This document shows, piece by piece, positions 1 to 31,292 of a DNA stretch of 64,000 nucleotides. This DNA comes from an uncultured Cetobacterium sp. (GTDB taxonomy: Bacteria > Fusobacteriota > Fusobacteriia > Fusobacteriales > Fusobacteriaceae), in contig CASFCG010000005.1 in assembly GCA_949293295.1 (NCBI GenBank), forward strand, positions 1 through 64,000. Reading direction: 5' to 3'. The translations under genes and the position numbers were made by a program. The notes under the pieces were generated by a model. That model saw only the letters and a program-made list of their open reading frames with translations. It ran no database searches and was not told where the DNA came from. The stretch's first letter is position 1, and each line of letters begins with the position of its first letter.

Positions 1-1
1 T

Positions 2-211: not shown

Positions 212-231
212 GATAAAAGAGGAGGAGAAAA

Positions 232-723: not shown

Positions 724-765
724 AAAACTTTAATAAACAAACTACCATCATATTGAGGAGGAAAA

Positions 766-1266
766 ATGTTGGTTAAAAAGATTATTTTTTTGATATTTTT
801 TACATTTTCTTTTGGCGCTTGTTTAGCTCCACAAAAAAACTATTTTTATAAAAAAAATGTCAATGAATATATAACTATTGAAGCTACTTTAATGGATAGT
901 AGTGAAAGAAATAGCCCTTTAAATGAAATTAAAGTAGTTCCTACAAGATTTGCAACTGTAAAAAAATTGGAAAAAATAGAGATTTTAAGCAAAAAAATAT
1001 TAATTGAACACGAGGGAGAGAAATCTTTTTTAGAGGTTACCGACGGCAACTCTCTTCTTCCCTATGACCAAGGAATCATCATAAAAGAAGGAACAATTAT
1101 AGTTCATTTAGGAAAAATAAAAATCGGAAATAAAATAATCCTTGATGTTCCTCCCATTGATTTAAAAAATTATTTTAAATTAAATGTAAAAATTTCTGAC
1201 TCTTCTGAGGATATTTATTATGGTAATGCGGATGGTTACAAAAGAAATAAAAGCAAGAAAAAATAA
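766..1266 (+). CDS. Small lipoprotein of unknown function
   Basis: This is a 166-residue protein with a basic start, a hydrophobic stretch and a lipobox (FGAC, Cys near residue 18). A GAGGAGG ribosome site precedes the ATG. The mature region alternates hydrophobic and polar residues, as in a beta-rich fold, and ends in a Lys-rich tail. There is no clear similarity to the preceding lipoprotein beyond the export signal. It is the last gene of the small left-edge cluster and is followed by a candidate terminator at 1353-1387. Its function is unknown. Confidence 0.72.
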   Translation: MLVKKIIFLIFFTFSFGACLAPQKNYFYKKNVNEYITIEATLMDSSERNSPLNEIKVVPTRFATVKKLEKIEILSKKILIEHEGEKSFLEVTDGNSLLPYDQGIIIKEGTIIVHLGKIKIGNKIILDVPPIDLKNYFKLNVKISDSSEDIYYGNADGYKRNKSKKK

Positions 1267-1294
1267 AATATTTTAAGTTAATTTATTCTTTATA

Positions 1295-1323
1295 TTGACA
1301 GATAAGCTTAATAAAGTTTATAA
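1295..1323 (+). promoter_or_regulatory. Candidate sigma-70 promoter with no annotated gene directly downstream
   Basis: A perfect -35 TTGACA (1295-1300) is separated by 17 bases from TTATAA (1318-1323). The next gene begins over 300 bases away, with two terminator-like hairpins between. It could drive a short RNA or be chance in AT-rich DNA. Confidence 0.4.
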
Positions 1324-1352
1324 AAATGAGATTAATAGTGATTAAAATAAAA

Positions 1353-1387
1353 GAGACAGAGTTCTTGGTATTCTTTGTCTTTTTCTC
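1353..1387 (+). terminator. Candidate intrinsic terminator of the lipoprotein cluster
   Basis: GACAGAG (1355-1361) pairs with CTTTGTC (1373-1379), with one G-T pair, around an 11-base loop. A T-rich run follows from 1380. Confidence 0.5.
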
Positions 1388-1470
1388 CTTTTTTCTAATC
1401 GTTTACTTGCTGATTTAATTATAATACAGATTTTTTTAATCTCGATGAAACTATGTTAGATTTTTAAATG

Positions 1471-1501
1471 GGAGATTTTAGCAGAATCTCCTGTTTTTTT
1501 G
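1471..1501 (+). terminator. Intrinsic terminator-like hairpin
   Basis: GGAGATT (1471-1477) pairs with AATCTCC (1485-1491) and a run of seven T follows. It lies between the lipoprotein cluster and the SDR gene, so it either backs up the first terminator or ends a short independent transcript. Confidence 0.6.
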
Positions 1502-1533
1502 TTTCAGTATATTTTTATAAAATAGATTTTCTC

Positions 1534-1562
1534 TTTATCTAGACATAAAAATATGCTACAAT
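1534..1562 (+). promoter_or_regulatory. Candidate promoter of the SDR gene
   Basis: The -10 TACAAT (1557-1562) carries an upstream TG, making an extended -10. The -35 at 17-base spacing (TTTATC) is weak. It lies 75 bases before the SDR start. Confidence 0.45.
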
Positions 1563-1637
1563 AGAGAAAATGGGAAGTAGTTTGATTGCATTAAGAAATG
1601 CTAAAAATAAAACTTTATTTTTAGGAGATGATGAAAA

Positions 1638-2414
1638 ATGACTAAAATCGAAGAGAGCTTCATTTTAAAAGGAAAAGTTGCTATTGTAACTGGAGCTGCA
1701 GCCGGTATTGGAAAGGCTTCGGCAATAATGTTAGCTAGAGCTGGAGCAAAGGTTGTTTGTTCAGATTTAAACCTTGATAACGCTCAAGAGGTTGTTAAAG
1801 AGATAAAAAAACTTGGTGGAGAAGCGATAGCAGTTAAATGTGATGTTACTTCTGAAGCTGAACTTGAAAGCTTAGTAAAAACAACAATTAATGAATTCAA
1901 AACTGTAAACATTCTAGTTAATAACGCTGGTGGTGGCGGTGGAGGAAGAGAAAAATTTACCGAATTAACAAGAGAATATCTATCCAAAATATTTGCTCTT
2001 AATACATTTAGTGTATTTGCTCTTTCAAAATTCTGTGTTCCATATATGAAAGAGAGTGGATATGGAAGTATTATAAATATAACGTCAATGGCTGGAACAA
2101 TGCAGACACACAACATGAGTGTTTACGGAAGCTCAAAAGCAGCAACAAATCAATTAACTAAATATATGGCAGTGGACTTAGGACCTGAAATAAGAGTTAA
2201 TGGAGTGGCTCCTGGTGCCATAAAAACTAGAGCTTTAGCATCTGTTTTGATTCCTGAAATAGAAGAGAAAATGTTGAGAAAAACACCTCTTAAAACGTTA
2301 GGAGAGGCGGATGATATAGCTATGGCGGTATTATATCTAGCATCCCCAGCTTCTAAATGGGTATCGGGACACATTATATCTATTAATGGTGGTGGAGAGC
2401 AAGAGTTAGATTAA
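1638..2414 (+). CDS. hdhA: SDR oxidoreductase, probable 7-alpha-hydroxysteroid dehydrogenase
   Basis: This 258-residue classical short-chain dehydrogenase has the TGxxxGIG dinucleotide motif at residues 18-25, NNAG at 95-98 and the catalytic set Ser150, Tyr163 and Lys167. From memory the whole chain resembles Escherichia coli HdhA, including the glycine run after NNAG, PGAI after the catalytic region and a C-terminus ending GGG-x-QEL. HdhA oxidises the 7-alpha-hydroxyl of bile acids with NAD. The gene stands alone between its own promoter and terminator, with a GGAG-type ribosome site. The family assignment is firm; the steroid substrate is inferred, and other SDR substrates such as sugar acids remain possible. 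Confidence 0.75.
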   Translation: MTKIEESFILKGKVAIVTGAAAGIGKASAIMLARAGAKVVCSDLNLDNAQEVVKEIKKLGGEAIAVKCDVTSEAELESLVKTTINEFKTVNILVNNAGGGGGGREKFTELTREYLSKIFALNTFSVFALSKFCVPYMKESGYGSIINITSMAGTMQTHNMSVYGSSKAATNQLTKYMAVDLGPEIRVNGVAPGAIKTRALASVLIPEIEEKMLRKTPLKTLGEADDIAMAVLYLASPASKWVSGHIISINGGGEQELD

Positions 2415-2425
2415 AAAAATTTTTA

Positions 2426-2475
2426 GAGAGAGGCAATATGAAGATAAATAAGATATTTAGCTTCTCTCCTTTTTG
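2426..2475 (+). terminator. Intrinsic terminator after the SDR gene
   Basis: GAGAGAGGC (2426-2434) pairs with GCTTCTCTC (2460-2468) across a 25-base loop, followed by a T run. It ends 17 bases before the next start. Confidence 0.65.
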
Positions 2476-2491
2476 TGTCTAAGGAGGTTAA

Positions 2492-2893
2492 ATGTCTATC
2501 TGGTTTTATGTGGGAATCATCTTTTTGGCTATTGAATTGCTAACTTTTGGTGTTGTGTCAATCTGGTTTGCACTCGGTGCTTTCTTAACAATTTTTTTTA
2601 AGAATCTATCTCTAGAATATCAATTTTACATCTTTGTTGTATGCTCCTTGATATCATTGGTTTTGTTTAGACAGATATCTTTAAAATACTTAAAAGGAAA
2701 TAGTAAAGAGTTAAATAGAATAGATGAAAAAATTGTAAAGATAGAAAATATTGATATAAGAGGAAATTTTATAATCTATACCGTCTATTTGGACGGAAAG
2801 CTGTGGGAAGCTATATCTGATGAAAGATTTAATCTTGGAGACAAAGCTAAAGTTAAATCTATCACGGGAAATAAATTAGTTTTGATTAAATAA
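2492..2893 (+). CDS. NfeD-like membrane protein
   Basis: The 133-residue product has two to three hydrophobic segments in its first 65 residues and a soluble beta-rich C-terminal part of about 60 residues. This is the layout of short NfeD proteins, whose tail is an OB fold. An AAGGAGG site precedes the ATG. The next gene, 19 bases on, encodes a stomatin-type SPFH protein. NfeD and SPFH genes form a well-known conserved pair in which the NfeD protein associates with the membrane scaffold. The length suits the short, protease-free class. Confidence 0.75.
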   Translation: MSIWFYVGIIFLAIELLTFGVVSIWFALGAFLTIFFKNLSLEYQFYIFVVCSLISLVLFRQISLKYLKGNSKELNRIDEKIVKIENIDIRGNFIIYTVYLDGKLWEAISDERFNLGDKAKVKSITGNKLVLIK

Positions 2894-2912
2894 TAAAATT
2901 AAGGAGGAAAAG

Positions 2913-3791
2913 ATGCCATTTTTATTTGGAATATTATTTATTTTTATAGTTTTAATTACTATAAATATTAGAATTGTCGCACAATCAGAGGCTTTTGTTG
3001 TTGAAAGATTAGGAGCATATCTTGGAACTTGGAGTGTTGGAATTAATTTTTTAATCCCTTTTATTGATAGAGTCGCTAAAAGAGTATCTCTAAAAGAGCA
3101 AGTAATAGATTTTAGACCTCAACCTGTTATTACAAAAGACAACGTAACTATGCAGATAGATTCTGTAGTCTACTTTCAAATAACAGACCCCAAATTATAT
3201 ACTTATGGTGTTGAAAATCCATTAAATGCAATAGAAAATCTGACTGCCACGACTTTAAGAAATCTGATTGGGGAGCTTGAACTTGATTCAACTTTGACCT
3301 CAAGAGATACTATAAACACAAAGATGAGAGCAATTCTTGATGAAGCCACAGATTCATGGGGAATAAAAATAAATAGAGTTGAACTTAAAAACATTATTCC
3401 TCCAGCTGCTATTCAAGATGCAATGGAAAAACAAATGAAAGCTGAAAGAGAAAGAAGAGAAGCTATCTTAAAAGCTGAAGGACAGAAAAAATCCGCAATA
3501 TTAGTTGCCGAAGGAGAAAAAGAAGCTGCTATTTTAAGAGCTGAAGCTAAAAAAGAAGCTGCCATAAAAGAAGCTGAAGGGCAGGCAGAAGCTATTTTAA
3601 GTATTCAACGAGCTAACGCGGAAGCTATTAGATTACTTAGAGAATCCGCTCCAGATAAAAATGTTTTGGCATTAAAAGGAATGGAGGCTTTTGAGAAAGT
3701 AGCTAATGGACAAGCTACAAAGATTATTATTCCTAGTGAATTACAAAACATTGTAACTCTAAGTGAACTTTTCCATGAATCTAAAAAATAA
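2913..3791 (+). CDS. SPFH/band 7 (stomatin-like) membrane scaffold protein
   Basis: The 292-residue protein has one N-terminal membrane segment (about residues 1-22), a band 7 domain running to about residue 175, and a long Ala/Glu/Lys-rich coiled coil (about 165-240). The coiled coil repeats AEG and AEA units typical of stomatin and QmcA-type oligomers. Such proteins form ring-like membrane assemblies linked to protease control and membrane microdomains. It follows the NfeD-like gene with a GGAGG site and is closed by a terminator at 3825-3855. Its partner substrates are unknown. Confidence 0.85.
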   Translation: MPFLFGILFIFIVLITINIRIVAQSEAFVVERLGAYLGTWSVGINFLIPFIDRVAKRVSLKEQVIDFRPQPVITKDNVTMQIDSVVYFQITDPKLYTYGVENPLNAIENLTATTLRNLIGELELDSTLTSRDTINTKMRAILDEATDSWGIKINRVELKNIIPPAAIQDAMEKQMKAERERREAILKAEGQKKSAILVAEGEKEAAILRAEAKKEAAIKEAEGQAEAILSIQRANAEAIRLLRESAPDKNVLALKGMEAFEKVANGQATKIIIPSELQNIVTLSELFHESKK

Positions 3792-3824
3792 CAGTTATTT
3801 CTATTTTTCATAAAATTGCAAAAA

Positions 3825-3855
3825 AACTAACGAGATATTTCACGTTAGTTTTTTT
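3825..3855 (+). terminator. Intrinsic terminator after the SPFH gene
   Basis: AACTAACG (3825-3832) pairs with CGTTAGTT (3843-3850) around a 10-base loop and continues into a T run. The A run on the left side could also let it act on the opposite strand. Confidence 0.8.
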
Positions 3856-3877
3856 ACTTATTACATAAATTAGGATA

Positions 3878-3906
3878 CAAAAAAAGGGCGGAATAACTCC
3901 GACCCC
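3878..3906 (-). terminator. Intrinsic terminator of the RNase Y operon
   Basis: On the minus strand a GC-rich stem (GGG+CGGA, 3886-3892, against TCCG+CCC, 3898-3905, with one bulged base) is followed by a run of T, seen as A at 3878-3885 on the plus strand. Confidence 0.75.
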
Positions 3907-3909
3907 TCT

Positions 3910-5475
3910 TTACTTTGCATACTCTGTTGCTCTCGTCTCTCTCAAAATTGTAACTTTTATCTGCCCTGGATACTGCATAGTCTCCTCTATTTTCTTGGCC
4001 ATTTCTCTTGCCATTTTCACAGCTCCATCATCCGATACAATCTCTGGATTTATAACAATTCTTATCTCTCTTCCAGCTTGAATTGCATAAGAGGACTCTA
4101 CACCATCAAACGAGTTAGCAATCTCTTCTAATCCCTCTAATCTTTTTAAATATGTAGATAACGTTTCTCTTCTTGCTCCAGGTCTTGATGCCGAGATAGC
4201 ATCAGAAGCCTGAACTAAAACAGCCTCTACCGTCTCAAATTCGACCTCATTATGATGTGCCATTACCGCATTTATAACCTCTGGTTTCTCTCCAAATTTT
4301 TTCAAGAACTCTCCACCTATAATAGCATGAGAGGATTCTGTATCATGTTCTAACACTTTTCCAACATCATGCAACACTCCTGCTCTTTTTGCTAATTTAG
4401 CATCTGCCCCTAACTCTGCCGCCAATGTTGAAGCCAATTTTGCCACCTCTATTGAGTGGGACAAAACATTTTGCCCATAACTTGTTCTATATTTCAATTT
4501 ACCCAAAGTCTTTATTATCTCCGTATGCATTCCTGGTATTCCTAACTCCAATAATGCTTGTTCTCCAGCTTCCAATATATCCTTATCCACTTCTCTTTTA
4601 CACTTATTGATAATCTCCTCTATTTTTCCTGGATGAATTCTACCATCTAATATTAATTTCTCTATAGCTCTTCTAGCGACCTCTCTTCTAACACCGTCAA
4701 AACTTGATAAAACTACTGCCTCTGGAGTATCATCTATTATTATATCCACTCCTGTTAGAGCTTCAATCGCTCTTATATTTCTTCCTTCTCTTCCAATAAT
4801 TCTACCTTTCATCTCATCATTTGGAAGATTTACAACCGAAACTGTCGCATCTGCCACAAACTCTGTTGAAGCCTTTCCAATAGCTGTTGAAATTATTCTC
4901 TTAGTAATATCCTCTTTTTCCTCTTTCAATTTTATCTCAAACTCTCTTATAGCTAAAGCTGTTTCATGTACCAGCTCTTCTTTTAAGTTGGACATCAACA
5001 TCTCTTTAGCTTCAGCTTTCGACAACTCCGCAACCTTTTCCAAAATCTCCTCTTGTTGCTTTTTCAATTCATCTATCTTAAGTTTCTTATTTTCTAAATT
5101 AATATTTATCTCTTCTAATTCTTGAGCTCTACTTTCTATCTTTTCTAATTTTAAATCTAGATTCTCCTCTTTTTTGGATAATCTTTGTTCCTTTTGAATA
5201 ATCTCATTTTTAGCTTGCTTTATCTCTTTCTCCGTTTCCTCTTTCATTCGATATAAATCTTCTCTTGCTTTTAATTCTAACTCTTTACACCTTGCTACAG
5301 CCTCTTTTTCAGCTTTTTCAACTATCTCTTTCGCTTTTAGTTTGGCTTTTAATCTCTCATCCTCTAATTCATTCAAAACCTCTATCTGTTTATCAATAGA
5401 TATTTTTTTATAGATGAGTCCAACAACCAAAACTACAGCAAGAGTTATCAATCCTATTCCTAATATAAAATCCAT
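3910..5475 (-). CDS. rny: Ribonuclease Y
   Basis: The 521-residue length is typical of RNase Y, the membrane-anchored endoribonuclease that starts mRNA decay. An N-terminal membrane segment (about 1-22) is followed by a long charged coiled coil to about residue 195. Next come a KH RNA-binding domain with the [11 protein letters not shown] signature and an HD nuclease domain with HDVGK. It is the last gene of a minus-strand operon behind an STAS antagonist, an anti-sigma kinase and a lipoprotein. A strong intrinsic terminator follows the stop. Confidence 0.96.
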
Positions 5476-11839: not shown

Positions 11840-12111
11840 AAAAACTTTCCTCTTTCCTTTTTTATTTCTATACAATATAATTTTACACTTTTTTTATAAA
11901 AAATAAAGAGTATAACTATTTTTTGTGCTAACCTTTCAAAATTTTCAATCTTAAACTAAACTTTTTTTATTTTTTGATAAAAATTTTTTCCATTTTCACA
12001 CACTATATTAAATAAAATTAACTCAATCACATCTTAAAACAGAATACCAAATTTAAAATAAAGTGTTATAAATCTTCACACTTAAATTTCACAAATCTGG
12101 TAAATTACTAA
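11840..12111. other. Gene-free divergent intergenic region
   Basis: This very AT-rich stretch separates the minus-strand helicase gene from the ptsH promoter. It holds the helicase leader (AGAGGAAAG near 11850). I see no convincing helicase promoter, no gene and no strong hairpin. Confidence 0.5.
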
Positions 12112-12140
12112 TTGACAAATTATGTAAAATTAAGTATCCT
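12112..12140 (+). promoter_or_regulatory. Candidate promoter of ptsH
   Basis: A perfect -35 TTGACA (12112-12117) is followed after 17 bases by TATCCT (12135-12140), 60 bases before the ptsH start. The -10 is imperfect. Confidence 0.55.
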
Positions 12141-12199
12141 ATGGGTGAGTTTTGATTAGGATACTGGAGAATAAAAAATTTATTAGAAGGGTGATAGTT

Positions 12200-12463
12200 A
12201 TGATAAGTAAAACAGTTGAAATTAAAAATGAAACAGGATTACATACAAGACCAGGAAATGAGTTCGTAAGCTTAGCAAAAACATTCTCATCACAAATTGA
12301 ATTGGAGAATGAAGAGGGAAAAAGAGTGAAAGGAACATCATTATTGAAATTATTATCACTAGGGGTAAAAAAAGGAGCAAAAATAACAGTTCATGCTTCA
12401 GGAGAGGATGAAAATGAAGCAGTTGAAAAGTTAGCGGATCTGTTAGAAAATTTAAAAGACTAA
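12200..12463 (+). CDS. ptsH: Phosphocarrier protein HPr
   Basis: The ATG at 12200 gives 87 residues, the usual HPr length; an upstream in-frame TTG at 12152 would add 16 residues with no family support. His15 lies in GLHTRPG and accepts phosphate from enzyme I before passing it to sugar permeases. The regulatory-serine position is retained in the GTSLLKLLSLG segment, which suggests control by HPr kinase, although no kinase gene is in view. ptsI follows after 159 bases. Confidence 0.95.
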   Translation: MISKTVEIKNETGLHTRPGNEFVSLAKTFSSQIELENEEGKRVKGTSLLKLLSLGVKKGAKITVHASGEDENEAVEKLADLLENLKD

Positions 12464-12622
12464 TTATTAAATAGATGTTTGTTGTAAAACTAACAGAGAG
12501 GATTCAGGTTCATAGTTTTTGTTATATATTTAGGGAAAGAACTACCCAGAAAGCTCGGAATTTTAATTCAAGAGTTTTCTAAATAAACAGTTCAGAAATA
12601 ATATTTAAGAGGTATAAAGCAT

Positions 12623-14362
12623 ATGAGAAAACACATAAAAGGGATTGATGCTTCCCCAGGTGTGGCTGTAGGGAAGGTGTTTTTATACAAAGAGGAAGAG
12701 CTTTTTATTGACAGAGGTGAATTTGAAAACACTGAAATACAAAAAGAAAGATTGATTGAAGGAAGAGAAAAGACAAAACAACAGCTCCTAAAAATAAGAG
12801 AAAAAACAGCTTTAAAACTTGGAGAGGATAAAGCAGCTATATTTGATGGACATATAACTTTGCTAGAGGATGAAGACCTTTTCGAAGAGGTTGAAGAGTT
12901 AATTGAAGAGGAAAAAATAAGTGCTGAAAATGCTCTAGAACAGGGAATTAGAGGATATTGTGATATGCTTTCCAATCTGGAAGATGAATACTTGAGAGAG
13001 AGAGCAGCAGATTTGAAAGATATCGCTAAAAGATGGCTTTATAATATAGCTGGAATAGATATAGTTGATTTATCTTCACTTCCTGAAAACTCTATCGTTG
13101 TTGCAAGAGACTTAACTCCATCAGATACAGCTCAATTAGACTTAAACAATGTTATTGCTTTCGTTACTGACATCGGAGGTAAAACAGCACACTCATCTAT
13201 AATGGCTCGTTCTTTAGAGATTCCAGCTGTTGTCGGAACTGGAAATATAACAGAATTGGTAAAAAATCGACAAGAGATTATTGTAGATGCTTTAACTGGG
13301 GATATTATAATAGAACCATCAGGAGAGGAAAAAACTACTTATCTTGAAAAGAGAAAAGCATATTTAGATGAGAAAGAGTTGTTAAAACAATTAAAGGATA
13401 AAAAAGCTATTTCTAAGGATGGAAAAGAGATAGGTGTCTGGGCAAATATTGGTTCACCTAACGATATCCAAGGTGTTCTTAAAAATGGAGCAAAAGGTAT
13501 AGGACTTTACAGAACTGAATTTCTATTCATGGCTAATGATAGATTTCCATCGGAAGAGGAACAGTTTGAAGCTTATAAAGTTGTAGCAGAGTCCATGAAA
13601 GATGAAGATGGAAACTATTATCCCGTAACAATTAGGACAATGGATATTGGAGGGGATAAATCACTGCCATATATGGAGTTACCTAAAGAGGAGAATCCTT
13701 TCTTGGGATGGAGAGCGTTGAGAATATGCTTGGATAGACCAGAGATATTGAAAACTCAATTCAGAGCACTTTTAAGAGCTTCAGCTTTTGGATATATTAA
13801 AATTATGCTTCCTATGGTAATATCGGTTGAGGAGTGTAGAAAAGCTAAAGCGTTGCTTGAAGAGTGTAAAAAAGAGTTACGAGAAGAGGGAGTAAAGTTT
13901 GATGAAAACATTCAACTTGGAATAATGATTGAAACACCAGCAACAGCTTTTAGAGCTAAATATTTTGCTAAAGAGGTGGATTTCTTCTCAATTGGAACAA
14001 ATGACTTAACTCAATATACTTTGGCTGTAGATAGAGGAAATGAAAAGATATCGAATCTATATGATACCTACAATCCTGGAGTTCTAGCTGCTATAAAATC
14101 TGCAATTGATGGAGCTCATGAGGGTGGAATTACAATATCTATGTGCGGAGAGTTTGCAGGAGAAGCAAGAGCAACAGCAGTACTATTTGGAATGGGATTG
14201 GACGCATTTTCAATGTCAGCTATATCTGTTGCAAAAGTTAAGAAAAATATATTGGAATTAGATTCCAAAATAGCTCAAGAATTAGTCGCAAAAGTTTTAG
14301 AAAAATCTACTACCGAAGAGGTTTTAGAAGAGATAGATAGATTTAATCAAAAATATCTATAA
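12623..14362 (+). CDS. ptsI: PTS enzyme I
   Basis: The 579-residue protein transfers phosphate from phosphoenolpyruvate to HPr. The N-terminal HPr-binding helical domain is followed by the phosphohistidine loop GGKTAHSSIMARS with His190. Next comes the PEP-binding TIM barrel with GLYRTEFLFM, RTMDIGGDK, the SIGTNDLTQY segment and the CGE catalytic Cys region. All expected motifs are present. A GAGG ribosome site lies before the ATG. ptsH lies upstream and a shared bidirectional terminator downstream. Confidence 0.97.
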   Translation: MRKHIKGIDASPGVAVGKVFLYKEEELFIDRGEFENTEIQKERLIEGREKTKQQLLKIREKTALKLGEDKAAIFDGHITLLEDEDLFEEVEELIEEEKISAENALEQGIRGYCDMLSNLEDEYLRERAADLKDIAKRWLYNIAGIDIVDLSSLPENSIVVARDLTPSDTAQLDLNNVIAFVTDIGGKTAHSSIMARSLEIPAVVGTGNITELVKNRQEIIVDALTGDIIIEPSGEEKTTYLEKRKAYLDEKELLKQLKDKKAISKDGKEIGVWANIGSPNDIQGVLKNGAKGIGLYRTEFLFMANDRFPSEEEQFEAYKVVAESMKDEDGNYYPVTIRTMDIGGDKSLPYMELPKEENPFLGWRALRICLDRPEILKTQFRALLRASAFGYIKIMLPMVISVEECRKAKALLEECKKELREEGVKFDENIQLGIMIETPATAFRAKYFAKEVDFFSIGTNDLTQYTLAVDRGNEKISNLYDTYNPGVLAAIKSAIDGAHEGGITISMCGEFAGEARATAVLFGMGLDAFSMSAISVAKVKKNILELDSKIAQELVAKVLEKSTTEEVLEEIDRFNQKYL

Positions 14363-23085: not shown

Positions 23086-24687
23086 TCATCCTAAATATCT
23101 CTTCAAAGTGTTTATTACTGCGTCTTTTCCAGCTAACATCTCTACAAAATAATCTTCAATTTTGTTAGCCATTCCAATCTCTTCCAAATCTACACCAAAT
23201 ATCATTTTATTTCTCAAAATCTCTTTTAACTGCCCTTTATATGATTCTGGTTTTCCAAACTCTATCCCTACCATCCTCTCTTTTAACATATCTAGCATAG
23301 GGTCTGGACTGATACTTCTTTCATTTCCATTGTCATCTATTCCTAGTAAATATCTGAACCATCCAGCATATACAAGAGGGATGTATTTTATATCTGCCAC
23401 ATTTAACTCATCACTTGCTAAATAAGCTTTTATAGTCTCTCCAAATCTTATTCCTACTTTTTGAGATGTATCTGTAGCTATTCTCTCTGGTTGGTCTGGA
23501 ATAAACTTATTTGCAAATCTCTCATCAATTACTTCGTCAATAAAAGCTTTTGGACTCAATATTTTTGGGTCATCTACAACTTTTAAAGCCTCATTATAGC
23601 CTATATTTTTTATCAATTTATTTAAATATGGATCTGATACAGCATCAAATATTGTTTTTTTATTCAATAAACATCCATATATAGCCAATGTTGTATGCAA
23701 TGGATTTAAACATGTTGTAACTTTCATCCTTTCAGTTTTCTCAACTGTTTCTCTATCTGTTACATAAACTCCAGCATCTGATTTTTCTAACTCTGGTCTT
23801 CCATTTGGAAATTTATCCTCTACTACAAAATACTCTGGTGCCTCAGCATTTACAAAGGCTCCTGTATAAGTATTTTTAGAAGTAACTACTATATTCATAT
23901 CTTCAAACCCTAATTTCTCTAAGTACTCTTTTACTACTTCCGCAGGTCTTGGAGTTATCTTATCTATCATAGATATTGGATAGGCTACTTTCTTTTCATC
24001 TGATATATACTCTAAGAACTCTTTTTCTATATATCCTTTCTCTATCCAATGTTTTGCTATATCACCTACTGCTTCCTTAATCTTATCTCCATTCCCAGCA
24101 CAGTTATCCATACTTACTAAAGCTATTGGAGTTGCTCCAGCTTTGTATCTAACATATAATAACTCTGTTATTACGCTCATTATATGTTTTGCTTGTTCTG
24201 GAATATTATTTAAATCTGCTTCCACAACTGGTATATACTCACCGTTTGGAGTTTTCAAATTATAACCTTTCTCAGTTATTGTAAAACTGACCATTTGGAG
24301 AGTTGATGCTTTTATAAGCTCTTTTACTTTCTCTTTATCTATATCAATTCTCAAAGCTTCAACAATGCTTCCGATAACCTCAGTCGAAAAATTGCCATCT
24401 TTTGATAAAGTTACAGATAAAGTCAAATTGTCATGTTTTTTATAAACTTTATCGATAATCTCTGTATCAAAGCTCTCCACAACAATAATTCCAGTATCTT
24501 CAAGTCCTTTATTCAAAAGATTTTGTTGCATCTTTGCCACATAAGCTCTAAAAAGATTACCTGCACCGAAATGTAACCATTTTGGTGTTTTTGCGGTATT
24601 CTCTTTGACTCTCTTTATATCATATGCGGGAGTTATCACTCCATCCTTTTTTGCGATATCTTTTATTTCATTTAAAATTAATCTCAT
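23086..24687 (-). CDS. uxuB: Fructuronate reductase (D-mannonate oxidoreductase)
   Basis: I use the ATG at 24687 (533 residues) because it has an AGAGGAG site; the longer frame from 24735 overlaps uxuA. The protein belongs to the polyol-specific long-chain dehydrogenases, with LHFGAGNLFRAY at the N-terminus for NAD binding and the CLNPLHTTLA segment in the catalytic half. It reduces fructuronate to mannonate with NADH. It lies between uxuA and the GPH transporter in the uronide operon. Confidence 0.94.
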   Translation of the reverse strand: MRLILNEIKDIAKKDGVITPAYDIKRVKENTAKTPKWLHFGAGNLFRAYVAKMQQNLLNKGLEDTGIIVVESFDTEIIDKVYKKHDNLTLSVTLSKDGNFSTEVIGSIVEALRIDIDKEKVKELIKASTLQMVSFTITEKGYNLKTPNGEYIPVVEADLNNIPEQAKHIMSVITELLYVRYKAGATPIALVSMDNCAGNGDKIKEAVGDIAKHWIEKGYIEKEFLEYISDEKKVAYPISMIDKITPRPAEVVKEYLEKLGFEDMNIVVTSKNTYTGAFVNAEAPEYFVVEDKFPNGRPELEKSDAGVYVTDRETVEKTERMKVTTCLNPLHTTLAIYGCLLNKKTIFDAVSDPYLNKLIKNIGYNEALKVVDDPKILSPKAFIDEVIDERFANKFIPDQPERIATDTSQKVGIRFGETIKAYLASDELNVADIKYIPLVYAGWFRYLLGIDDNGNERSISPDPMLDMLKERMVGIEFGKPESYKGQLKEILRNKMIFGVDLEEIGMANKIEDYFVEMLAGKDAVINTLKRYLG

Positions 24688-24704
24688 TTTTACTCCTCTT
24701 TCAA

Positions 24705-25754
24705 CTACTTTGAAATTTTTGAGATTGTTTCCCAAATTCCAGTAATATAGCTTGCTCCTAAGGCTCTATCATAAAGCCCATATCCAGGTTTTCCTGTCTC
24801 TCCCCAAATCATTCTTCCATGGTCTGGTCTCAAATATCCATCAAATCCATTTTTATAAAGCATTTTCATTATCTCAACTATATCAAGAGAACCACATCCA
24901 GAATAATGAGCTGATTCCTCAAAGCTAACTCCATCAGATAATATCTTCACATTTCTCACATGAATGAAATGAATTCTTTTCATAGCACTATATTTATCTA
25001 CTAGTCTTGCCATATCATTAAATTTAGCACAACCAAGAGAACCAGTACAAAGAGTCAAACCATTATATCTGCTATCTACAAGATTTAAAAATCTATCTAC
25101 ATTCTCCTCACATGTAATTATTCTAGGAAGTCCAAAAATTGACCAAGGCGGATCATCCGGATGAATTGCCATTTTCACATCTGCCTCTTCTGCAACTGGG
25201 ATTATCTCTTTTAAGAAATATTCTAAGTTTTTCCATAATCCCTCTTCCCCTATTTTTTTATAAGCTTCAAATAGCTCTGACAACTGCTCTTTTGTATAAC
25301 TTGAATCCCAACCAGGCAAAGATAAATCCTTATTTAACGGGTCCATTTGGTCAACTTGCTCTTTGTAATACACAAGAGTTGTAGAACCATCTTCCAATTC
25401 TTTATCTAATTGACTTCTTGTCCAGTCAAATACTGGCATAAAATTATAACAAATAACTTTTACTCCTGCTTTTCCTAAGTTCCTAATATTTTGTTTATAA
25501 TTTTCAATGTATTTATCTCGGTCTCCTCTTCCTAATTTAATATCCTCATGAACAGGAACACTCTCAATAACATCAAATTTTAATCCAGCTTTTTCAACAA
25601 TCTCTTTAAGATTTAATATCTTCTCCATTGACCATACTTCACCAACTGGAACATCATATATTGCAGTTACTATACTTTCCATTGTTGGAATCTGTTTTAT
25701 ATATTCCAACTTCACAGGGTCATTTACCCCATACCATCTGAACGATAATTTCAT
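24705..25754 (-). CDS. uxuA: Mannonate dehydratase
   Basis: The 349-residue enzyme dehydrates D-mannonate to 2-keto-3-deoxygluconate. Family marks include the N-terminal [11 protein letters not shown], the metal-site segment IHPDDPPW and LCTGSLG, and the C-terminal [10 protein letters not shown]. Length matches UxuA of low-GC bacteria. An AGGAGG site precedes the ATG. It is the second gene of the operon after uxaC. Confidence 0.96.
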
Positions 25755-25771
25755 TTTTCCTCCTTAAAACT

Positions 25772-27169
25772 TTATATTAATTTAAAATAATTTTTAGCGT
25801 TTTCAAATGATATCTCTTCTATCATTTTTGTCAAAATCTCTTCATCATAAGGAATCTCTCCATCTATAACCCATTCCCCAACAAGATTACACAAAATTCT
25901 TCTGAAATATTCATGCCTTGTGTAAGACAATATACTTCTTGAATCTGTAAGCATTCCCACAAATCTTCTTAACAATCCAAGTTGGGACAAAGCTGTCATT
26001 TGTCTTATCATTCCATCTTTTTGGTCATTAAACCACCAACCAGAGCCAAATTGAATTTTTCCTGGCATATCACTATTTTGGAAGTTTCCAATCATAGTTC
26101 CTAAAACCTCATTGTCCTTAGGATTCAAACAATATAAAACTGTTCGAGATAGCTTCTCTTCCAAATCCAAAGCACTTAACAATTTTGAAATAGACAAAGC
26201 ATAGTTCTCATCAGCTATAGAATCAAATCCTGAATCCGCTCCTAATATTTTAAACATACGTTCATTATTATTTCTCATTGCTCCCATATGAATTTGAATC
26301 GCTAAATCGTATTTATGATAGATTTTTCCAAGAGCCAAAAATAGCTCTGTTTTATATATCTCCTGCTCCTCTAAACTCAATTCTTTTCTAGATAACCTTT
26401 TAGAAAAAATCTCTTCTATCCTTTCACTCCCTCTTCTGAAGAAAGGTTTTTCTATACTGTGGTCTGTAACTAAACACCCATTTTCTTTAAAAAACTCAAC
26501 TCTTTTTTCTAGAGCTTCAATTAATTGACTAAACGAAACTATCTTGATTTCTGATATCTCTTCCAACTTTCTTAACCAATCTAAATACTCCACTTTTTCT
26601 ATAGCTAGAGCTCTATCAGGTCGAAATGTTGGAAGTACTTTTATTTCAAAACTTGTATCCTCTTTTATCTTTTTGTGATACTCCAAGTTATCTACCGGGT
26701 CATCTGTTGTACAAACCGCTTTTACATTTGATTTTTTCATCAACTCTCTAGGAGTGTACTCTTTCTCTTGTAATAACTTGTTTACTTTCTCCCATATTTT
26801 TTCAGCATTCTTTCTGTTTAAAATCTCATCCACTCCGAAAAATCTTTTTAATTCCAAATGCGACCAGTGAAACATTGGATTTCCATAGCAGTACTCCATT
26901 GTCTCAGCAAATGCCAAAAACTTTTCATAATCTGAAGCATCTCCAGTAATATATTTTTCATCTATACCATTAGACCTCATAACTCTCCACTTATAGTGGT
27001 CTCCCGACAACCAAACCTCTGTCAGATTTTTGTAGTTTCTATTCTCTGCTATCTCTTTTGGATTTAAATGACAGTGATAATCAAAAATTGGCATCTTTTC
27101 TGATATAGAATATAATTTTTTACTAATCTCATTTTTTAATAAAAAATCATTATCCATAAACTTTTTCAT
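25772..27169 (-). CDS. uxaC: Glucuronate isomerase
   Basis: The 465-residue enzyme isomerises D-glucuronate to fructuronate and D-galacturonate to tagaturonate. The N-terminal FDYHCHLNPKEIAEN carries metal-binding His residues, and IQIHMGAMRNNN and GSGWWFNDQ are typical later blocks. It is the first gene of the operon, directly behind a 17-base-spaced promoter and a palindrome. No tagaturonate branch (uxaA/uxaB) is present, so glucuronate is the likely physiological substrate. Confidence 0.96.
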   Translation of the reverse strand: MKKFMDNDFLLKNEISKKLYSISEKMPIFDYHCHLNPKEIAENRNYKNLTEVWLSGDHYKWRVMRSNGIDEKYITGDASDYEKFLAFAETMEYCYGNPMFHWSHLELKRFFGVDEILNRKNAEKIWEKVNKLLQEKEYTPRELMKKSNVKAVCTTDDPVDNLEYHKKIKEDTSFEIKVLPTFRPDRALAIEKVEYLDWLRKLEEISEIKIVSFSQLIEALEKRVEFFKENGCLVTDHSIEKPFFRRGSERIEEIFSKRLSRKELSLEEQEIYKTELFLALGKIYHKYDLAIQIHMGAMRNNNERMFKILGADSGFDSIADENYALSISKLLSALDLEEKLSRTVLYCLNPKDNEVLGTMIGNFQNSDMPGKIQFGSGWWFNDQKDGMIRQMTALSQLGLLRRFVGMLTDSRSILSYTRHEYFRRILCNLVGEWVIDGEIPYDEEILTKMIEEISFENAKNYFKLI

Positions 27170-27184
27170 TTTACCTCTCCTTAT

Positions 27185-27203
27185 TTGTATGATTTGTATA
27201 CAA
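27185..27203. promoter_or_regulatory. Candidate GntR/FCD operator in front of uxaC
   Basis: TTGTAT (27185-27190) and ATACAA (27198-27203) form inverted half-sites 7 bases apart, and TTGTATACAA (27194-27203) is itself a perfect palindrome. It lies just downstream of the uxaC -10, where a bound repressor would block transcription. The GntR protein at 27703-28383 is the natural candidate. Confidence 0.55.
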
Positions 27204-27205
27204 CA

Positions 27206-27234
27206 ATAATATAATGTTTTATATCATTTGTAAA
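27206..27234 (-). promoter_or_regulatory. Promoter of the uronide operon
   Basis: On the minus strand TTTACA (27229-27234) and TATTAT (27206-27211) are exactly 17 bases apart, 37 bases before the uxaC start. Confidence 0.7.
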
Positions 27235-27657
27235 GTAATTTTTTATATTGTTTAGTACTTATTTAGAACACTTTTTTAGGATTTTATATTTAAAATCAGA
27301 TTATATAAGAATTTTTGATTTTTTTACCAGCAGGTAAACTTCTGTTTTTAAAAAAAGTAGTATAATTTGGAAACTAAATATTATAAAACTAAGACAAATA
27401 AAACGCTACCTTACAAAATATTCATAACACAGTTCTGCTACTATTAAAAATAAAAGTTTAATACACAAAATGCTAAATAATTATTTAAAGTTTGGTAAAG
27501 AGCTCGTAAAATACAGTTATTTCCTAAGAACTTCCCGTTTCTTAAAACACCGATAACTTACTGATATCATTTCCCGTCTTTAAATTTTGCTGAATAATAT
27601 GTAGAAATGAGTAAAATGAAATGTTAAATAAAAAAAGTTCTTTATTTCATACAAATT
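27235..27657. other. Gene-free AT-rich region between the uronide operon and its regulator
   Basis: No gene with a plausible ribosome site is visible. A short inverted repeat, TTTACC-AGCA-GGTAAA, lies near 27325. A 28-codon frame near 27471 lacks a ribosome site and is ignored. Confidence 0.5.
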
Positions 27658-27702
27658 AAAAAGAGAGATGTAATAAACCGTAATTTATACTTCTCTCGTT
27701 TT
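27658..27702 (-). terminator. Intrinsic terminator of the GntR gene
   Basis: GAGAGA-x-GTA (27663-27672) pairs with TAC-x-TCTCTC (27688-27697). On the minus strand the stem is followed by a T run (A on the plus strand near 27658). It could act in both directions. Confidence 0.65.
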
Positions 27703-28383
27703 TTACTTAAAGTAATTAGGATATTTTTCCTTATACAATTTTATAGACTCTGTATATTTTGTTAAATGTTCTTTTACTAACTCTTTAACCTCTTTCGAAT
27801 TACCACTTTTAATAACCTCAAGTATCAAAAAATGTTGCTTTAGAGTTGTTTTCAAATTTGTCTGTTCTAATGCTTCCAGTAATCTCAATCTATCGTAATG
27901 AGTGGATAATCTCTGAATAGCTTTCCAACTATTCTTCTTATTAAAATATTTAAACAAAATATAATGAAACTCATTATCCAAATCAAAAAACTCATATAAA
28001 TTTTTTCCATACTCTTCTGTAATCTCCTGACATGCTAAATTTTTCTCTAAATCTACCAAAAAATCCTTTTTTTCATCTTTACAAGCAAGCTTTAATATCT
28101 CACTTTCACATAGCTCTCTCACAAAAATAGCTTCCTCTACTATATCTAAATCAATTTTAGATACGAACGAGCCTTTCTGTGGAAAGACTACTATCAGTTT
28201 TTCTTCGATTAATTGAACCAATGCTTCTCTCAATGGTGTTCTACTGACACCAAGAACATTACTCAATTCAATCTCTTTTATTGCTTCACCCGGCTTTAAC
28301 TCTAAATTCATTATATTTGTCTTTAGAACCCTGTATATATACCGTCTTGTATTCTCTTTCGCTTTTTTTCGTTCTATTTTCAT
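27703..28383 (-). CDS. GntR family (FCD subfamily) transcriptional regulator
   Basis: The 226-residue protein has an N-terminal winged helix with LSNVLGVSRTPLREALVQL and an all-helical FCD ligand domain that retains Asp/His metal-site positions (LDNEFH). FCD regulators such as UxuR, ExuR and KdgR control sugar-acid genes. It is monocistronic with its own promoter and terminator, and lies just upstream of the uronide operon. Regulation of that operon, probably by repression relieved by an intermediate, is inferred. Confidence 0.88.
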   Translation of the reverse strand: MKIERKKAKENTRRYIYRVLKTNIMNLELKPGEAIKEIELSNVLGVSRTPLREALVQLIEEKLIVVFPQKGSFVSKIDLDIVEEAIFVRELCESEILKLACKDEKKDFLVDLEKNLACQEITEEYGKNLYEFFDLDNEFHYILFKYFNKKNSWKAIQRLSTHYDRLRLLEALEQTNLKTTLKQHFLILEVIKSGNSKEVKELVKEHLTKYTESIKLYKEKYPNYFK

Positions 28384-28530: not shown

Positions 28531-30321
28531 TTATTTTTCCCACTCCTCTATCACCTTTTTCAAATAATTTCTAATCGAATTAAAATAAATAGTTTTTGAT
28601 TTGTTTTTTAAATCTAATAAAAAGTTTACACTAATATTTTCCTCTCTTGCACATTCTTTTACTGCTTTTTCTTCAATTTTTAACTTTTCATATTCATCAA
28701 ACTTTTCAAATAGCTCTAGATACCCTTCTTTTTTTTCATTTTCATTTATTAGCTCACCTATATTTGTTACAATAGATTTTTTTAATGGCTTTCTAGCTTG
28801 ATTTAGTTTTCTTTTACTTGTTAACCCTTTTTCCATACTATTAAATAAAGTTAAATTTTGCTTTGGAGTTTCTCTTTCTTGCTTTGACAAATTCTTCAAT
28901 ACTCCATTTATATATTGAACTAACGTCGTTTTTACTGGAGAATTTAAATTTTTATAAAGAATCTTTAAAAGCTCTATCAAAAACTCCTCTCCCTCTTCAA
29001 ACATTATCTTTCTAATTTTGGTGTCAGTTCTCTTGTCCCAAGATTTCGAAATATATATATTTCTTTTTGTTTTTTGAATCTGTGTAACTACTTTTTCAGA
29101 ATAATCGCTGTATTTAGATTTTTCATTTTTTGGAGTCATCTCAGATTTATTATCTTCTACAATTTCTGCTTCTTGTATATCATTAATCTCGTATTTAGAA
29201 AAATTTCTTTCAGATTTCTTACCTATTTTATTCTCAATCTTAAACTGTTTACTATTTTTTGCTTCTATATACTCAGATATATGACATGTCCCATCTTTAT
29301 TTTCATCAAACACATACTCTATATAATATGTGTCCTCCTCTTTATCCTGATAGGAACTATATTTTTTTATATACCCTAACTCTTTCAAAACCTCATAGGC
29401 TTTCTCAACCCTTTTCAAAACCTGCTTCATTCTGCATAAAATATATTTTTTTATTTCACCATTTTTACTAACTCTCTCTGTTATTTGCTCTGTTTTTAGA
29501 GGAATAATTGCCGCTATCGTCCTTAAGTTTATCCTATCTTCTTGCTTTTCATACCTTATTTTACTTATATATTTGTATATTCTTCCAGCGATAGGGTCTT
29601 TTGCTAATATCTCCATCAATGCTTTTGAATTGTACTTTATATATCTCTTGTCTTTTATTTTTTGCCTTATATTTTTATTTAATGTTACTCTATAATAGAT
29701 TTTTTTTCCTTTTTTTAACTTTTGATATGTCAAAAGCTTAAACTCCTCATCCTCAAATTTATATTTTCCCAGTTTTGTGTGATTTGAAACCACAAATTGA
29801 TACTCTGTATTTTTTAAATTTTTTAATGCTTGCTCAACTTTTGTGTAATAGGTTCTGTTCATTTTATTTCCCAAAAAATTAACTATAAAATCAGAGATTT
29901 CAAACTCTATATGCTCCTCTGAAAGTTCCAACTCTTTCTTTATTTCATATGCTGAAATCAAATAAGTGTATATTTTTTCTTCAAATATTGAGGGTTGAAA
30001 TACTTTATCTTTTGCATTCTTAGCAACTAGAGTACAATACATAGTCACACCTAAATCTTCAAAAGAGTACTGAAAGTTTACTCTTTTATTTTGCTTCTGA
30101 GGAGTAAAAAAAGGAAACACAATCATTTCAACTGGGATGTTTATCACATTATCCTTTAGATTTAAAAAATTTCCAGTCTCTTTTATAACAACCTCTTTTA
30201 CCTCTATATCTGGAATCTCATTTAATTGTATATCTATTTTGGTAATATCACTCAATAATGACCCTGTCGAGGATATATTTATATTTTCAATTTCATTTAA
30301 ATTTAACTCTTTTTTCTCCAT
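28531..30321 (-). CDS. Plasmid-type replication initiator protein (Rep/RPA-like)
   Basis: The 596-residue protein has no AAA+ motifs, so it is not DnaA. Residues about 65-330 look like a tandem winged-helix initiator of the RepA/RPA/TrfA kind: an N-terminal block (FPFFTPQKQ...VNFQYSFEDLGV), then a segment around DPIAGRIYKYISKIRY and a helix-rich VLKELGYIKKY end. The remaining 260 or so residues are Lys/Glu-rich with a predicted linker and a helical C-terminus that I do not recognise. The gene faces away from an iteron array, next to rpmH, and its -35 lies inside an iteron. I infer chromosomal origin initiation; an integrated plasmid Rep is the alternative. AAGGAGAT precedes the ATG. Confidence 0.75.
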   Translation of the reverse strand: MEKKELNLNEIENINISSTGSLLSDITKIDIQLNEIPDIEVKEVVIKETGNFLNLKDNVINIPVEMIVFPFFTPQKQNKRVNFQYSFEDLGVTMYCTLVAKNAKDKVFQPSIFEEKIYTYLISAYEIKKELELSEEHIEFEISDFIVNFLGNKMNRTYYTKVEQALKNLKNTEYQFVVSNHTKLGKYKFEDEEFKLLTYQKLKKGKKIYYRVTLNKNIRQKIKDKRYIKYNSKALMEILAKDPIAGRIYKYISKIRYEKQEDRINLRTIAAIIPLKTEQITERVSKNGEIKKYILCRMKQVLKRVEKAYEVLKELGYIKKYSSYQDKEEDTYYIEYVFDENKDGTCHISEYIEAKNSKQFKIENKIGKKSERNFSKYEINDIQEAEIVEDNKSEMTPKNEKSKYSDYSEKVVTQIQKTKRNIYISKSWDKRTDTKIRKIMFEEGEEFLIELLKILYKNLNSPVKTTLVQYINGVLKNLSKQERETPKQNLTLFNSMEKGLTSKRKLNQARKPLKKSIVTNIGELINENEKKEGYLELFEKFDEYEKLKIEEKAVKECAREENISVNFLLDLKNKSKTIYFNSIRNYLKKVIEEWEK

Positions 30322-30371
30322 ATATCTCCTTAAAAATTAATATCTTTAATAATGTGTATATTAATAAAAAT

Positions 30372-30400
30372 ATTATACCAATTTTTTTGTATATACTCAA
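30372..30400 (-). promoter_or_regulatory. Promoter of the initiator gene, overlapped by iteron 1
   Basis: On the minus strand TTGAGT (30395-30400) and TATAAT (30372-30377) are 17 bases apart, and the -10 is extended (TGG before TATAAT). The -35 and most of the spacer lie inside iteron 1, so initiator binding should repress its own gene. Confidence 0.7.
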
Positions 30401-30410
30401 TAATATTTTT
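30385..30410. repeat. Iteron 1 (strong type)
   Basis: The core TGTATATACTCAATAATA begins at 30388 and is flanked by T runs. It is identical over 26 bases to iteron 5. Confidence 0.85.
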
Positions 30411-30487
30411 ACAAATTTTAAAATCTTTATTTTCAATCTTAGAATTAATAGTACACCCTTTTGTATTGAGAAAAATAAGAGTTTTCA

Positions 30488-30512
30488 CAAATGTATATAA
30501 AGAATAATAAAT
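30488..30512. repeat. Iteron 2 (weak type)
   Basis: ATGTATAT (30491-30498), four variable bases, then AATAATAAAT. It matches iteron 4 at 18 of 22 positions and lies exactly 198 bases from it; TGTATAT begins at 30492. Confidence 0.65.
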
Positions 30513-30582
30513 CAGAATTATTAGTTTTTTTAGCTATATAAACCTGCTACTGTTAAAAATACTGAAAACTCCTATCTCGCTC

Positions 30583-30608
30583 TTTTGTATATATTCAATA
30601 ATATTTTT
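30583..30608. repeat. Iteron 3 (strong type)
   Basis: It differs from iterons 1 and 5 at one base (ATTCAA for ACTCAA). TGTATAT begins at 30586, exactly 198 bases after iteron 1. Confidence 0.85.
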
Positions 30609-30685
30609 TATTCTCATAACATACTAATTTTTAATATATTAATTTTTTTCGACTTAATTTTAATAGGAAAAAATCTTGATTTCTC

Positions 30686-30710
30686 TTTATGTATATTTTC
30701 AATAATAAAT
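30686..30710. repeat. Iteron 4 (weak type)
   Basis: ATGTATAT (30689-30696), TTTC, then AATAATAAAT. TGTATAT begins at 30690, 104 bases after iteron 3 and 198 after iteron 2. Confidence 0.7.
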
Positions 30711-30780
30711 AAAAATATTTATTTTTTCTAGAAAATTTTAATTTTAAAACTCAAAAAAATAAATAAATTCTAATTTTATC

Positions 30781-30806
30781 TTTTGTATATACTCAATAAT
30801 ATTTTT
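30781..30806. repeat. Iteron 5 (strong type)
   Basis: It is identical to iteron 1 over 26 bases. TGTATAT begins at 30784, 94 bases after iteron 4 and 198 after iteron 3. Confidence 0.85.
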
Positions 30807-30889
30807 TTATTATAACACATTTATTTTTAAAGGTTGATTGCACTTTTTTTTGTCATCTTAATCATTACATTATACATATAACAATTAAC

Positions 30890-30932: not shown

Positions 30933-31087
30933 AAGATAATAGTTGCATAAGAATCTCAAAAAATGCAAGTAAAAAAAGAGTTTTTTACTGATATGTATAT
31001 TTATAAAAATAAAATAATTCCCTTGAATTTATCAAAATACTATTCAAAATATATCTTTAATTCTTATTACAATAACAAATAAATCAC

Positions 31088-31116
31088 TTGACAAAACAAA
31101 TAATTTCTTCTACAAT
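31088..31116 (+). promoter_or_regulatory. Promoter of rpmH
   Basis: A perfect TTGACA (31088-31093), 17 bases, and TACAAT (31111-31116), about 40 bases before the rpmH start. Confidence 0.85.
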
Positions 31117-31157: not shown

Positions 31158-31292
31158 ATGAAAAGAACGTATCAACCAAATAATAGAAAATACAAAAAAG
31201 ACCACGGATTTAGAGCTAGAATGGCGACTAAAAATGGAAGAAAAGTATTAAAAAGAAGAAGAGCCAAAGGAAGAAAAGTATTATCTGCGTAA
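31158..31292 (+). CDS. rpmH: 50S ribosomal protein L34
   Basis: A 44-residue, highly basic protein with the L34 signature: MKRTYQPN at the start, then HGFRARM, and [11 protein letters not shown] at the end. It is a component of the large ribosomal subunit. GGGGAGGTG precedes the ATG. It has its own promoter and a GC-rich terminator. rpmH is usually adjacent to dnaA at bacterial origins, but here its divergent neighbour is the Rep-type initiator. The gene is short but its identity is unambiguous. Confidence 0.98.

What the first reader, a model, noticed from the sequence alone, without database searches (positions are those of the whole stretch)
30385..30806. Five iterons on an exact 198-base lattice with alternating 104/94-base spacing
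TGTATAT cores lie at 30388, 30492, 30586, 30690 and 30784. Strong copies (1, 3, 5) are 26-base near-identical (copies 1 and 5 identical, copy 3 differs at one base). Weak copies (2, 4) share 18 of 22 bases with each other. Both classes repeat at exactly 198 bases. The sequences between copies show no similarity by eye, so the spacing looks selected rather than left over from a simple duplication. 198 bases is close to 19 helical turns, so bound initiators would face the same side. Such wide, phased spacing differs from the usual tandem plasmid iterons.
Basis: seen in the sequence. Interest (0 to 1): 0.85.

Follow-up and report, generated by a model that had tools for sequence, protein, structure and literature searches.

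The report
DnaA-free chromosome origin with 105-bp lattice
The repeats are part of the chromosome's replication start site in a whole bacterial family (Fusobacteriaceae) that appears to have lost the near-universal starter protein DnaA and to use a plasmid-type starter protein in its place, with binding sites spaced about ten turns of the DNA helix apart.

Summary
The five sites are real and far beyond chance (7 motif hits in the intergenic region against 0.003 expected). They lie between rpmH and a divergent gene (rep) whose relatives belong to Pfam PF10134, "Replication initiator protein A". GC skew flips exactly here, so this is the chromosomal origin. None of 61 genomes of the family has a true DnaA, while 36 of 37 other genomes of the phylum do. 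Rep sits in dnaA's usual slot (rpmH | origin | rep-S4-recF-dciA-gyrB). The same site, wATGTATAynnwCAATAATAwttt, recurs across the family, including Fusobacterium vincentii. Spacings fall at about 93, 105 or 116 bp, with nothing at 96-101 or 108-113. The spacers drift to shuffled-level identity. A second element at fixed register subdivides the unit (about 44-43-18). Site 1 forms the -35 box of rep's own promoter. An Ilyobacter plasmid with a 34%-identical Rep carries a different motif on the same 105-bp unit. Best reading: a plasmid-type initiator replaced DnaA in situ and assembles on a helically phased array.

The parts
28531..30321 (-). rep: 596-aa plasmid-type initiator (PF10134 RPA relatives), predicted chromosomal replication initiator in place of DnaA
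   Evidence: Homologue in 59 of 61 family genomes, none in 36 of the other 37; PF10134 in 13 of 21 orthologues, best 1.3e-7, above the cut-off in the F. vincentii orthologue; no Walker A
30372..30377 (-). -10 box (TATAAT) of the rep promoter
   Evidence: Sequence; 17 bp from the -35 box; geometry seen in 34 of 52 origins against a 16% background
30395..30400 (-). -35 box (TTGAGT) of the rep promoter, inside iteron 1: predicted autorepression
30355..30372 (+). extra, weaker iteron upstream of the lattice (18.7 bits)
   Evidence: stronger counterpart about 53 bp before the first lattice site in most genus relatives
30388..30405 (+). iteron 1 TGTATATACTCAATAATA (24.3 bits)
30492..30509 (+). iteron 2 TGTATATAAAGAATAATA (16.9 bits, weak)
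30586..30603 (+). iteron 3 TGTATATATTCAATAATA (22.7 bits)
30690..30707 (+). iteron 4 TGTATATTTTCAATAATA (21.7 bits)
30784..30801 (+). iteron 5 TGTATATACTCAATAATA (24.8 bits)
30860..30883 (.). counterpart of the conserved element AGTCTGTACATATAACATTATACA beyond the last iteron (function unknown)
   Evidence: TATACA recurs 86-95 bp beyond the last iteron in most genus relatives; its k-mers are enriched in 5-9 genera
30994..31011 (+). outlying weak iteron (16.2 bits) near the rpmH promoter
31088..31116 (+). rpmH promoter (TTGACA-17-TACAAT), right border of the origin
31158..31292 (+). rpmH, first gene of rpmH-rnpA-yidD-yidC-jag-mnmE-mnmG

Best explanation
This is the chromosomal replication origin of a Fusobacteriaceae bacterium that has no DnaA. 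A plasmid-type initiator of the RPA/RepA kind, encoded next to the origin in the slot that dnaA occupies in sister families, binds the TGTATAYnnWCAATAATA iterons. All lattice iterons point the same way and lie 9, 10 or 11 helical turns apart (mostly 105 bp), so bound Rep molecules face the same side of the DNA and can join, by looping or wrapping the spacers, into one nucleoprotein complex. A second element at fixed register (about 44 bp after one iteron and 18 bp before the next) marks a modular unit and may bind a partner protein or a second domain of Rep. The complex would melt the AT-rich DNA and load DnaB, perhaps with DciA, whose gene lies downstream of recF. Iteron 1 contains the -35 box of the rep promoter, so Rep would repress itself; scattered sites within some 150 kb of the origin would titrate Rep. 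Shown from sequence: origin position, DnaA absence, Rep co-distribution and synteny, site conservation, spacing classes, promoter overlap. Inferred: binding by Rep, cooperativity, melting, helicase loading, autorepression and titration.
For: Origin: GC skew flips from -0.39 to +0.34 at 30-32 kb of the window; in the single-contig genome G015 it flips at rep and again nearly half the circle away. DnaA: Bac_DnaA_C in 0 of 61 family genomes and 36 of 37 others; Bac_DnaA at E below 1e-44 in the same 36, and in the family only weak hits of E 3e-12 or worse in 21 genomes; none in the F. vincentii chromosome; no TTATNCACA in 49,948 bp of family origins. Rep: 59 of 61 genomes, beside rpmH where contigs allow; rep-S4-recF-dciA-gyrB order where Haliovirga (G062) has dnaA-S4-recF-dciA-gyrB; PF10134; one clade against plasmid Reps (100/99). 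Sites: 306 in 52 origins, 295 on one strand; spacing modes 93, 105, 116, with 0 of 51 genus-unique values in the troughs where 17 are expected (p about 1e-9). Sub-spacings change by 10 bp: 44 to 34 in 95-bp units, 43 to 53 in 114-116-bp units. Second element at the same offset in several genus groups separately. Promoter overlap in 34 of 52 origins. pILYOP02: different motif, same unit (106,105,105,105,104,105,105). Origin-proximal enrichment of other sites (p 3e-7 or less in three genomes).
Against: No binding, essentiality or replication data. The window's Rep itself does not reach PF10134 by single-sequence search; it is filed there only through orthologues. The best single period of the spacings is 11.5 bp (R 0.72), not 10.5 (R 0.56), so the steps are about one turn but not exact. 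In genus g4 some sites are 56 and 70 bp apart and out of phase; g11 and g12 are irregular. The promoter overlap is not seen in g5 and g14. Other plasmid Reps of the family (pILYOP01, pHIC) show no clear 105-bp lattice. The one-turn shifts of sub-spacings rest on five units in three genera. The helix-angle argument assumes about 10.5 bp per turn in very AT-rich DNA.
Confidence: 0.83

Rival explanations
1. The iterons bind another protein, for instance a centromere or nucleoid-organising protein (a parS-like role), and Rep starts replication elsewhere in the region or is not the initiator.
For: Extra copies of the site cluster around the origin over tens of kb, as parS sites do. Binding by Rep is inferred, not shown.
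Against: Iteron 1 is the -35 box of the rep promoter in 34 of 52 origins. The site is essentially absent from DnaA-bearing relatives without Rep (1 hit each in two genomes). A plasmid with a homologous Rep has its own motif on the same 105-bp unit beside its rep. The site is not a palindrome.
Confidence: 0.1
2. The lattice is the remnant of tandem duplication of a 105- or 198-bp unit without selection on spacing.
For: In G006 sites 4 and 5 have near-identical flanks and G015 carries the whole lattice twice, 680 bp apart, so duplication does occur.
Against: Spacers are at shuffled-level identity between the window and relatives while iterons are at 0.85. Spacings fall in discrete classes one turn apart with empty troughs. 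The spacing outlives the spacers across the family.
Confidence: 0.03
3. The sites are only a regulatory array for rep and rpmH transcription, and chromosome replication is DnaA-independent by another route, such as recombination-dependent initiation as proposed for some DnaA-free cyanobacteria and endosymbionts.
For: Site 1 overlaps the rep promoter. DnaA-free bacteria without a known substitute exist (PMC7198777, PMC10579323).
Against: A sharp GC-skew switch at this spot, unlike the irregular skew reported for those DnaA-independent cyanobacteria. Four further sites extend to about 500 bp from the rep start in the window. Rep is kept throughout the family in dnaA's slot.
Confidence: 0.04

Closest known systems
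Iteron plasmid origins (RK2/TrfA, R6K/pi, P1, F, pPS10)
   Same: Rep encoded beside the origin, direct same-strand repeats of 17-22 bp, helical phasing needed for cooperativity (half-turn insertion abolishes it in RK2; PMC4980987)
   Different: Primary chromosome and not a plasmid; iterons about 105 bp apart and not close tandem (22-bp intervals in F. nucleatum plasmid pFN3; PMC1924603); no DnaA or DnaA boxes, which such plasmids usually also need
PF10134 (RPA, Replication initiator protein A) plasmid initiators, with the chromid and plasmid Reps pILYOP01, pILYOP02 and Haliovirga pHIC
   Same: Homologous protein (32-35% identity); pILYOP02 shares the 105-bp unit
   Different: Chromosomal Reps form one clade at the dnaA slot; their iteron sequence is unrelated to those of the plasmids
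Vibrio chromosome 2 origin (RctB)
   Same: Plasmid-derived initiator replicating an essential replicon, with iterons beside its gene (from general knowledge and PMC6090056)
   Different: There DnaA still drives chromosome 1; here the primary chromosome itself seems to use the plasmid-type initiator
Canonical DnaA-oriC
   Same: Same place between rpmH and the recF-gyrB genes, GC-skew switch, array of initiator sites, initiator gene with a site in its promoter
   Different: No DnaA, no DnaA boxes; initiator without a Walker A motif; wide phased lattice
DnaA-free cyanobacteria and endosymbionts
   Same: Chromosome replication without DnaA
   Different: There dnaA was lost without a known substitute and GC skew is irregular (PMC7198777, PMC10579323); here a substitute sits in its place and skew is sharp

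Membership tests
PF10134 RPA (Replication initiator protein A) | Profile match above the gathering score | tested here: inconclusive
   Window protein alone: no match. 13 of 21 orthologues match at E 0.1 or better, best 1.3e-7; the F. vincentii orthologue scores 31.7 against a cut-off of 27 over 192 of 228 positions.
Iteron-regulated replicon | Several same-strand direct repeats of 17-22 bp next to the rep gene | tested here: met
   295 of 306 sites on one strand in 52 origins; 18-bp core
Iteron-regulated replicon | Rep binds the repeats | not testable with these tools
   Needs footprinting or ChIP
Iteron-regulated replicon | Rep represses its own promoter through a related site | tested here: inconclusive
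   Site overlaps the -35 box in 34 of 52 origins; repression itself untested
Iteron-regulated replicon | Repeats in close tandem, about two helical turns apart | tested here: not met
   93, 105 or 116 bp apart
DnaA-oriC | DnaA protein encoded | tested here: not met
   0 of 61 genomes; F. vincentii none
DnaA-oriC | DnaA boxes TTATNCACA | tested here: not met
   0 in 49,948 bp of family origins; present in five of six DnaA-bearing relatives examined
Bacterial chromosomal origin | GC-skew switch and the rpmH/recF/gyrB neighbourhood | tested here: met

The most novel reading that the evidence does not exclude
In the common ancestor of a whole family of mostly free-living or commensal bacteria, a plasmid RPA-type initiator replaced DnaA at the native dnaA-oriC locus, and the primary chromosome has since been replicated from a modular array of iterons, spaced in whole helical turns (mostly ten), with a second element at fixed register: an origin architecture not described before.
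Probability: 0.72. Interest if true: 0.93.

Novelty: new variant of a known kind. Interest (0 to 1): 0.86.

Why it matters
DnaA is regarded as the near-universal bacterial initiator. A family that includes the cancer-associated Fusobacterium nucleatum group appears to have swapped it for a plasmid-type protein at the very same locus. That makes an old question testable: can a plasmid initiator take over a primary chromosome, and how is once-per-cycle control kept? The 105-bp lattice also offers a clean natural series (9, 10 and 11 turns) for studying how initiators use helical phase. A family-specific initiator would also be of interest as a narrow target.

Tried and rejected
Hairpins in the spacers: some pairs of arms looked complementary by eye, but over 136 spacers the mean folding z-score was -0.40; the apparent arms are copies of a second element in opposite orientation. 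Exact 10.5-bp periodicity: tested, 11.5 fits better; reported as steps of about one turn. Identification of the protein by single-sequence Pfam, PHROGs, NCBIfam and PDB search gave nothing; a profile search of PDB gave only weak ETS winged-helix hits (E 0.03 or worse). Literature: searches found no description of DnaA loss or of this lattice in Fusobacteriaceae; the F. [quoted passage not shown] The library lacks most subscription journals.

Full report
WHAT IS THERE. The five TGTATAT sites are at the stated places. They lie in a 17% GC intergenic region of 836 bp between rpmH (31158, +) and a divergent 596-aa gene, here called rep (28531-30321, -). To the right runs rpmH-rnpA-yidD-yidC-jag-mnmE-mnmG, the usual neighbourhood of a bacterial oriC, but without dnaA. 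GC skew changes sign here, -0.39 to the left and +0.34 to the right. In the single-contig genome G015 20-kb samples switch sign at rep and back nearly half the circle away.

NO DnaA IN THE FAMILY. In 98 genomes of the phylum, the DnaA C-terminal domain is found in 36 of the 37 genomes outside the window's family and in none of the 61 inside it. The DnaA ATPase profile gives E below 1e-44 in the same 36. In the family it gives only weak hits (E 3e-12 or worse) in 21 genomes, which I take to be DnaC- or IstB-like ATPases. The window's genome is only 83% complete, but many family members are 99-100% complete and some are single contigs. The F. vincentii chromosome also has no match. No TTATNCACA box occurs in 49,948 bp of family origins, whereas five of six DnaA-bearing relatives examined have them near dnaA.

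WHAT REPLACES IT. The 596-aa protein has homologues in 59 of 61 family genomes; 57 of these are clear orthologues, the other two being a fragment and a paralogue. Outside the family it occurs once, on the Haliovirga plasmid pHIC. rpmH and rnpA are its neighbours in nearly all family loci long enough to tell, with a few longer or interrupted intergenic regions. In G028, G038 and F. vincentii rep is followed by recF, with the S4-domain gene, dciA and gyrB in the same run in G028 and G038; Haliovirga (G062) has dnaA in that slot with the same neighbours. In the window's genus recF has moved elsewhere. Thirteen of 21 orthologues match Pfam PF10134, Replication initiator protein A (best 1.3e-7); the F. 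vincentii protein passes the curated cut-off. There is no Walker A motif. Chromosomal Reps form one clade against plasmid Reps (100/99), consistent with a single takeover. The takeover reading is inference from these facts.

THE SITE. A weight matrix from 52 family origins gives wATGTATAynnwCAATAATAwttttt, 21.7 bits. At 15 bits there are 306 sites, 295 of them on the same strand. The window has seven; 2000 shuffles average 0.003. F. vincentii, not used for the matrix, has sites 104, 93, 102 and 52 bp apart in the same position.

THE SPACING. The exact 198-bp period and the strong/weak alternation are not kept by any relative. Spacings cluster at 91-95, 102-107 and 114-120 bp. Counting each spacing once per genus, none of 51 values falls in 96-101 or 108-113, where 17 would be expected if even (p about 1e-9). 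The troughs were chosen after seeing the histogram, so that p-value is generous; the emptiness itself is plain. The best single period is 11.5 bp and 10.5 is worse, so I claim steps of about one helical turn, not an exact pitch. Iterons are 0.85 identical between window and relatives, spacers 0.57 against 0.55 for shuffled: distance is kept while sequence drifts.

A SECOND ELEMENT. CCYTnnAAAATCAAGG occurs in fixed register and opposite orientations: centre about 44 bp after one iteron and about 18 bp before the next, the two copies about 43 bp apart. Scored separately, several genus groups show the same offsets. In 95-bp units the first gap is 34 and not 44; in 114-116-bp units the middle gap is 53 and not 43. 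One-turn changes thus occur inside the unit at different places. This rests on five units in three genera. The element is weak in the window itself.

LINK BETWEEN REP AND SITES. (a) Iteron 1 contains the -35 box of a rep promoter: TTGAGT, 17 bp, TATAAT in the window. The geometry occurs in 34 of 52 origins against a 16% per-position background, mostly with exactly 17 bp. It is not seen in g5 and g14. (b) The motif is essentially absent from DnaA-bearing relatives. (c) The Ilyobacter conjugative plasmid pILYOP02, whose Rep is about 34% identical, has an unrelated motif, TTCTCCGCAAGTGTGATG, twice per unit at 45/61/44/61/44/60/45/60 bp; alternate sites are 106,105,105,105,104,105,105 apart. The 105-bp unit therefore seems to go with the Rep family and not with one DNA sequence. 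Other plasmid Reps of the family do not show it clearly. (d) Further copies of the chromosomal site are concentrated near the origin in three genomes tested (p 3e-7 or less), compatible with titration.

MECHANISM. Proposed: Rep molecules on iterons that face the same side of the helix join into one complex, with the spacers looped or wrapped; the AT-rich DNA melts and DnaB is loaded, perhaps with DciA. In RK2 a half-turn insertion between iterons abolishes cooperativity (Bowers et al. 2007, as cited in PMC4980987), so phase-sensitive Rep assembly has a precedent. Everything from binding onward is inferred.

WHAT IS KNOWN. The F. [quoted passage not shown] By position that is this rep, so the location was guessed, but not, as far as the open library shows, that DnaA is missing, that the protein is a plasmid-type initiator, or that the lattice exists. 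That library lacks most subscription journals and all preprints, so priority is not certain.

VERDICT. I file it as a new variant of a known kind (iteron/Rep origin), because the parts are recognisable while their place and geometry are new.

Noticed in passing
NZ_CP084075.1 (L179): Record titled F. vincentii plasmid pSB055A is 2,108,235 bp and carries rep, rpmH, rnpA and recF: it appears to be the chromosome, mis-titled.
   Followed up: partly
L094 (G015:C1, about 610.9-612.3 kb): The whole iteron lattice is present twice in tandem, shifted by 680 bp.
   Followed up: no
L043 (G009:C6): A second identical rep with rpmH/rnpA on a 22-kb contig, plus a degraded third copy with many stops.
   Followed up: no
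window 30860-30883: Counterpart of a conserved element (AGTCTGTACATATAACATTATACA in relatives) between the last iteron and the rpmH promoter, role unknown; it could be a promoter, a melting site or a binding site.
   Followed up: partly
G039 (genus g7, 93% complete): No rep homologue found although its genus mate G040 has several; possibly an assembly gap.
   Followed up: no
G059:C2:478595-478817: A further triple of the same site downstream of rep at 106- and 99-bp spacing.
   Followed up: no
window 23086-28383: By sequence, what looks like a hexuronate catabolism cluster (fructuronate reductase, mannonate dehydratase, glucuronate isomerase) with a GntR/FCD regulator next to rep; only the regulator was scanned against Pfam.
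   Followed up: no
window 1-4000 and 12001-14000: GC skew is locally positive within the otherwise negative left replichore.
   Followed up: no
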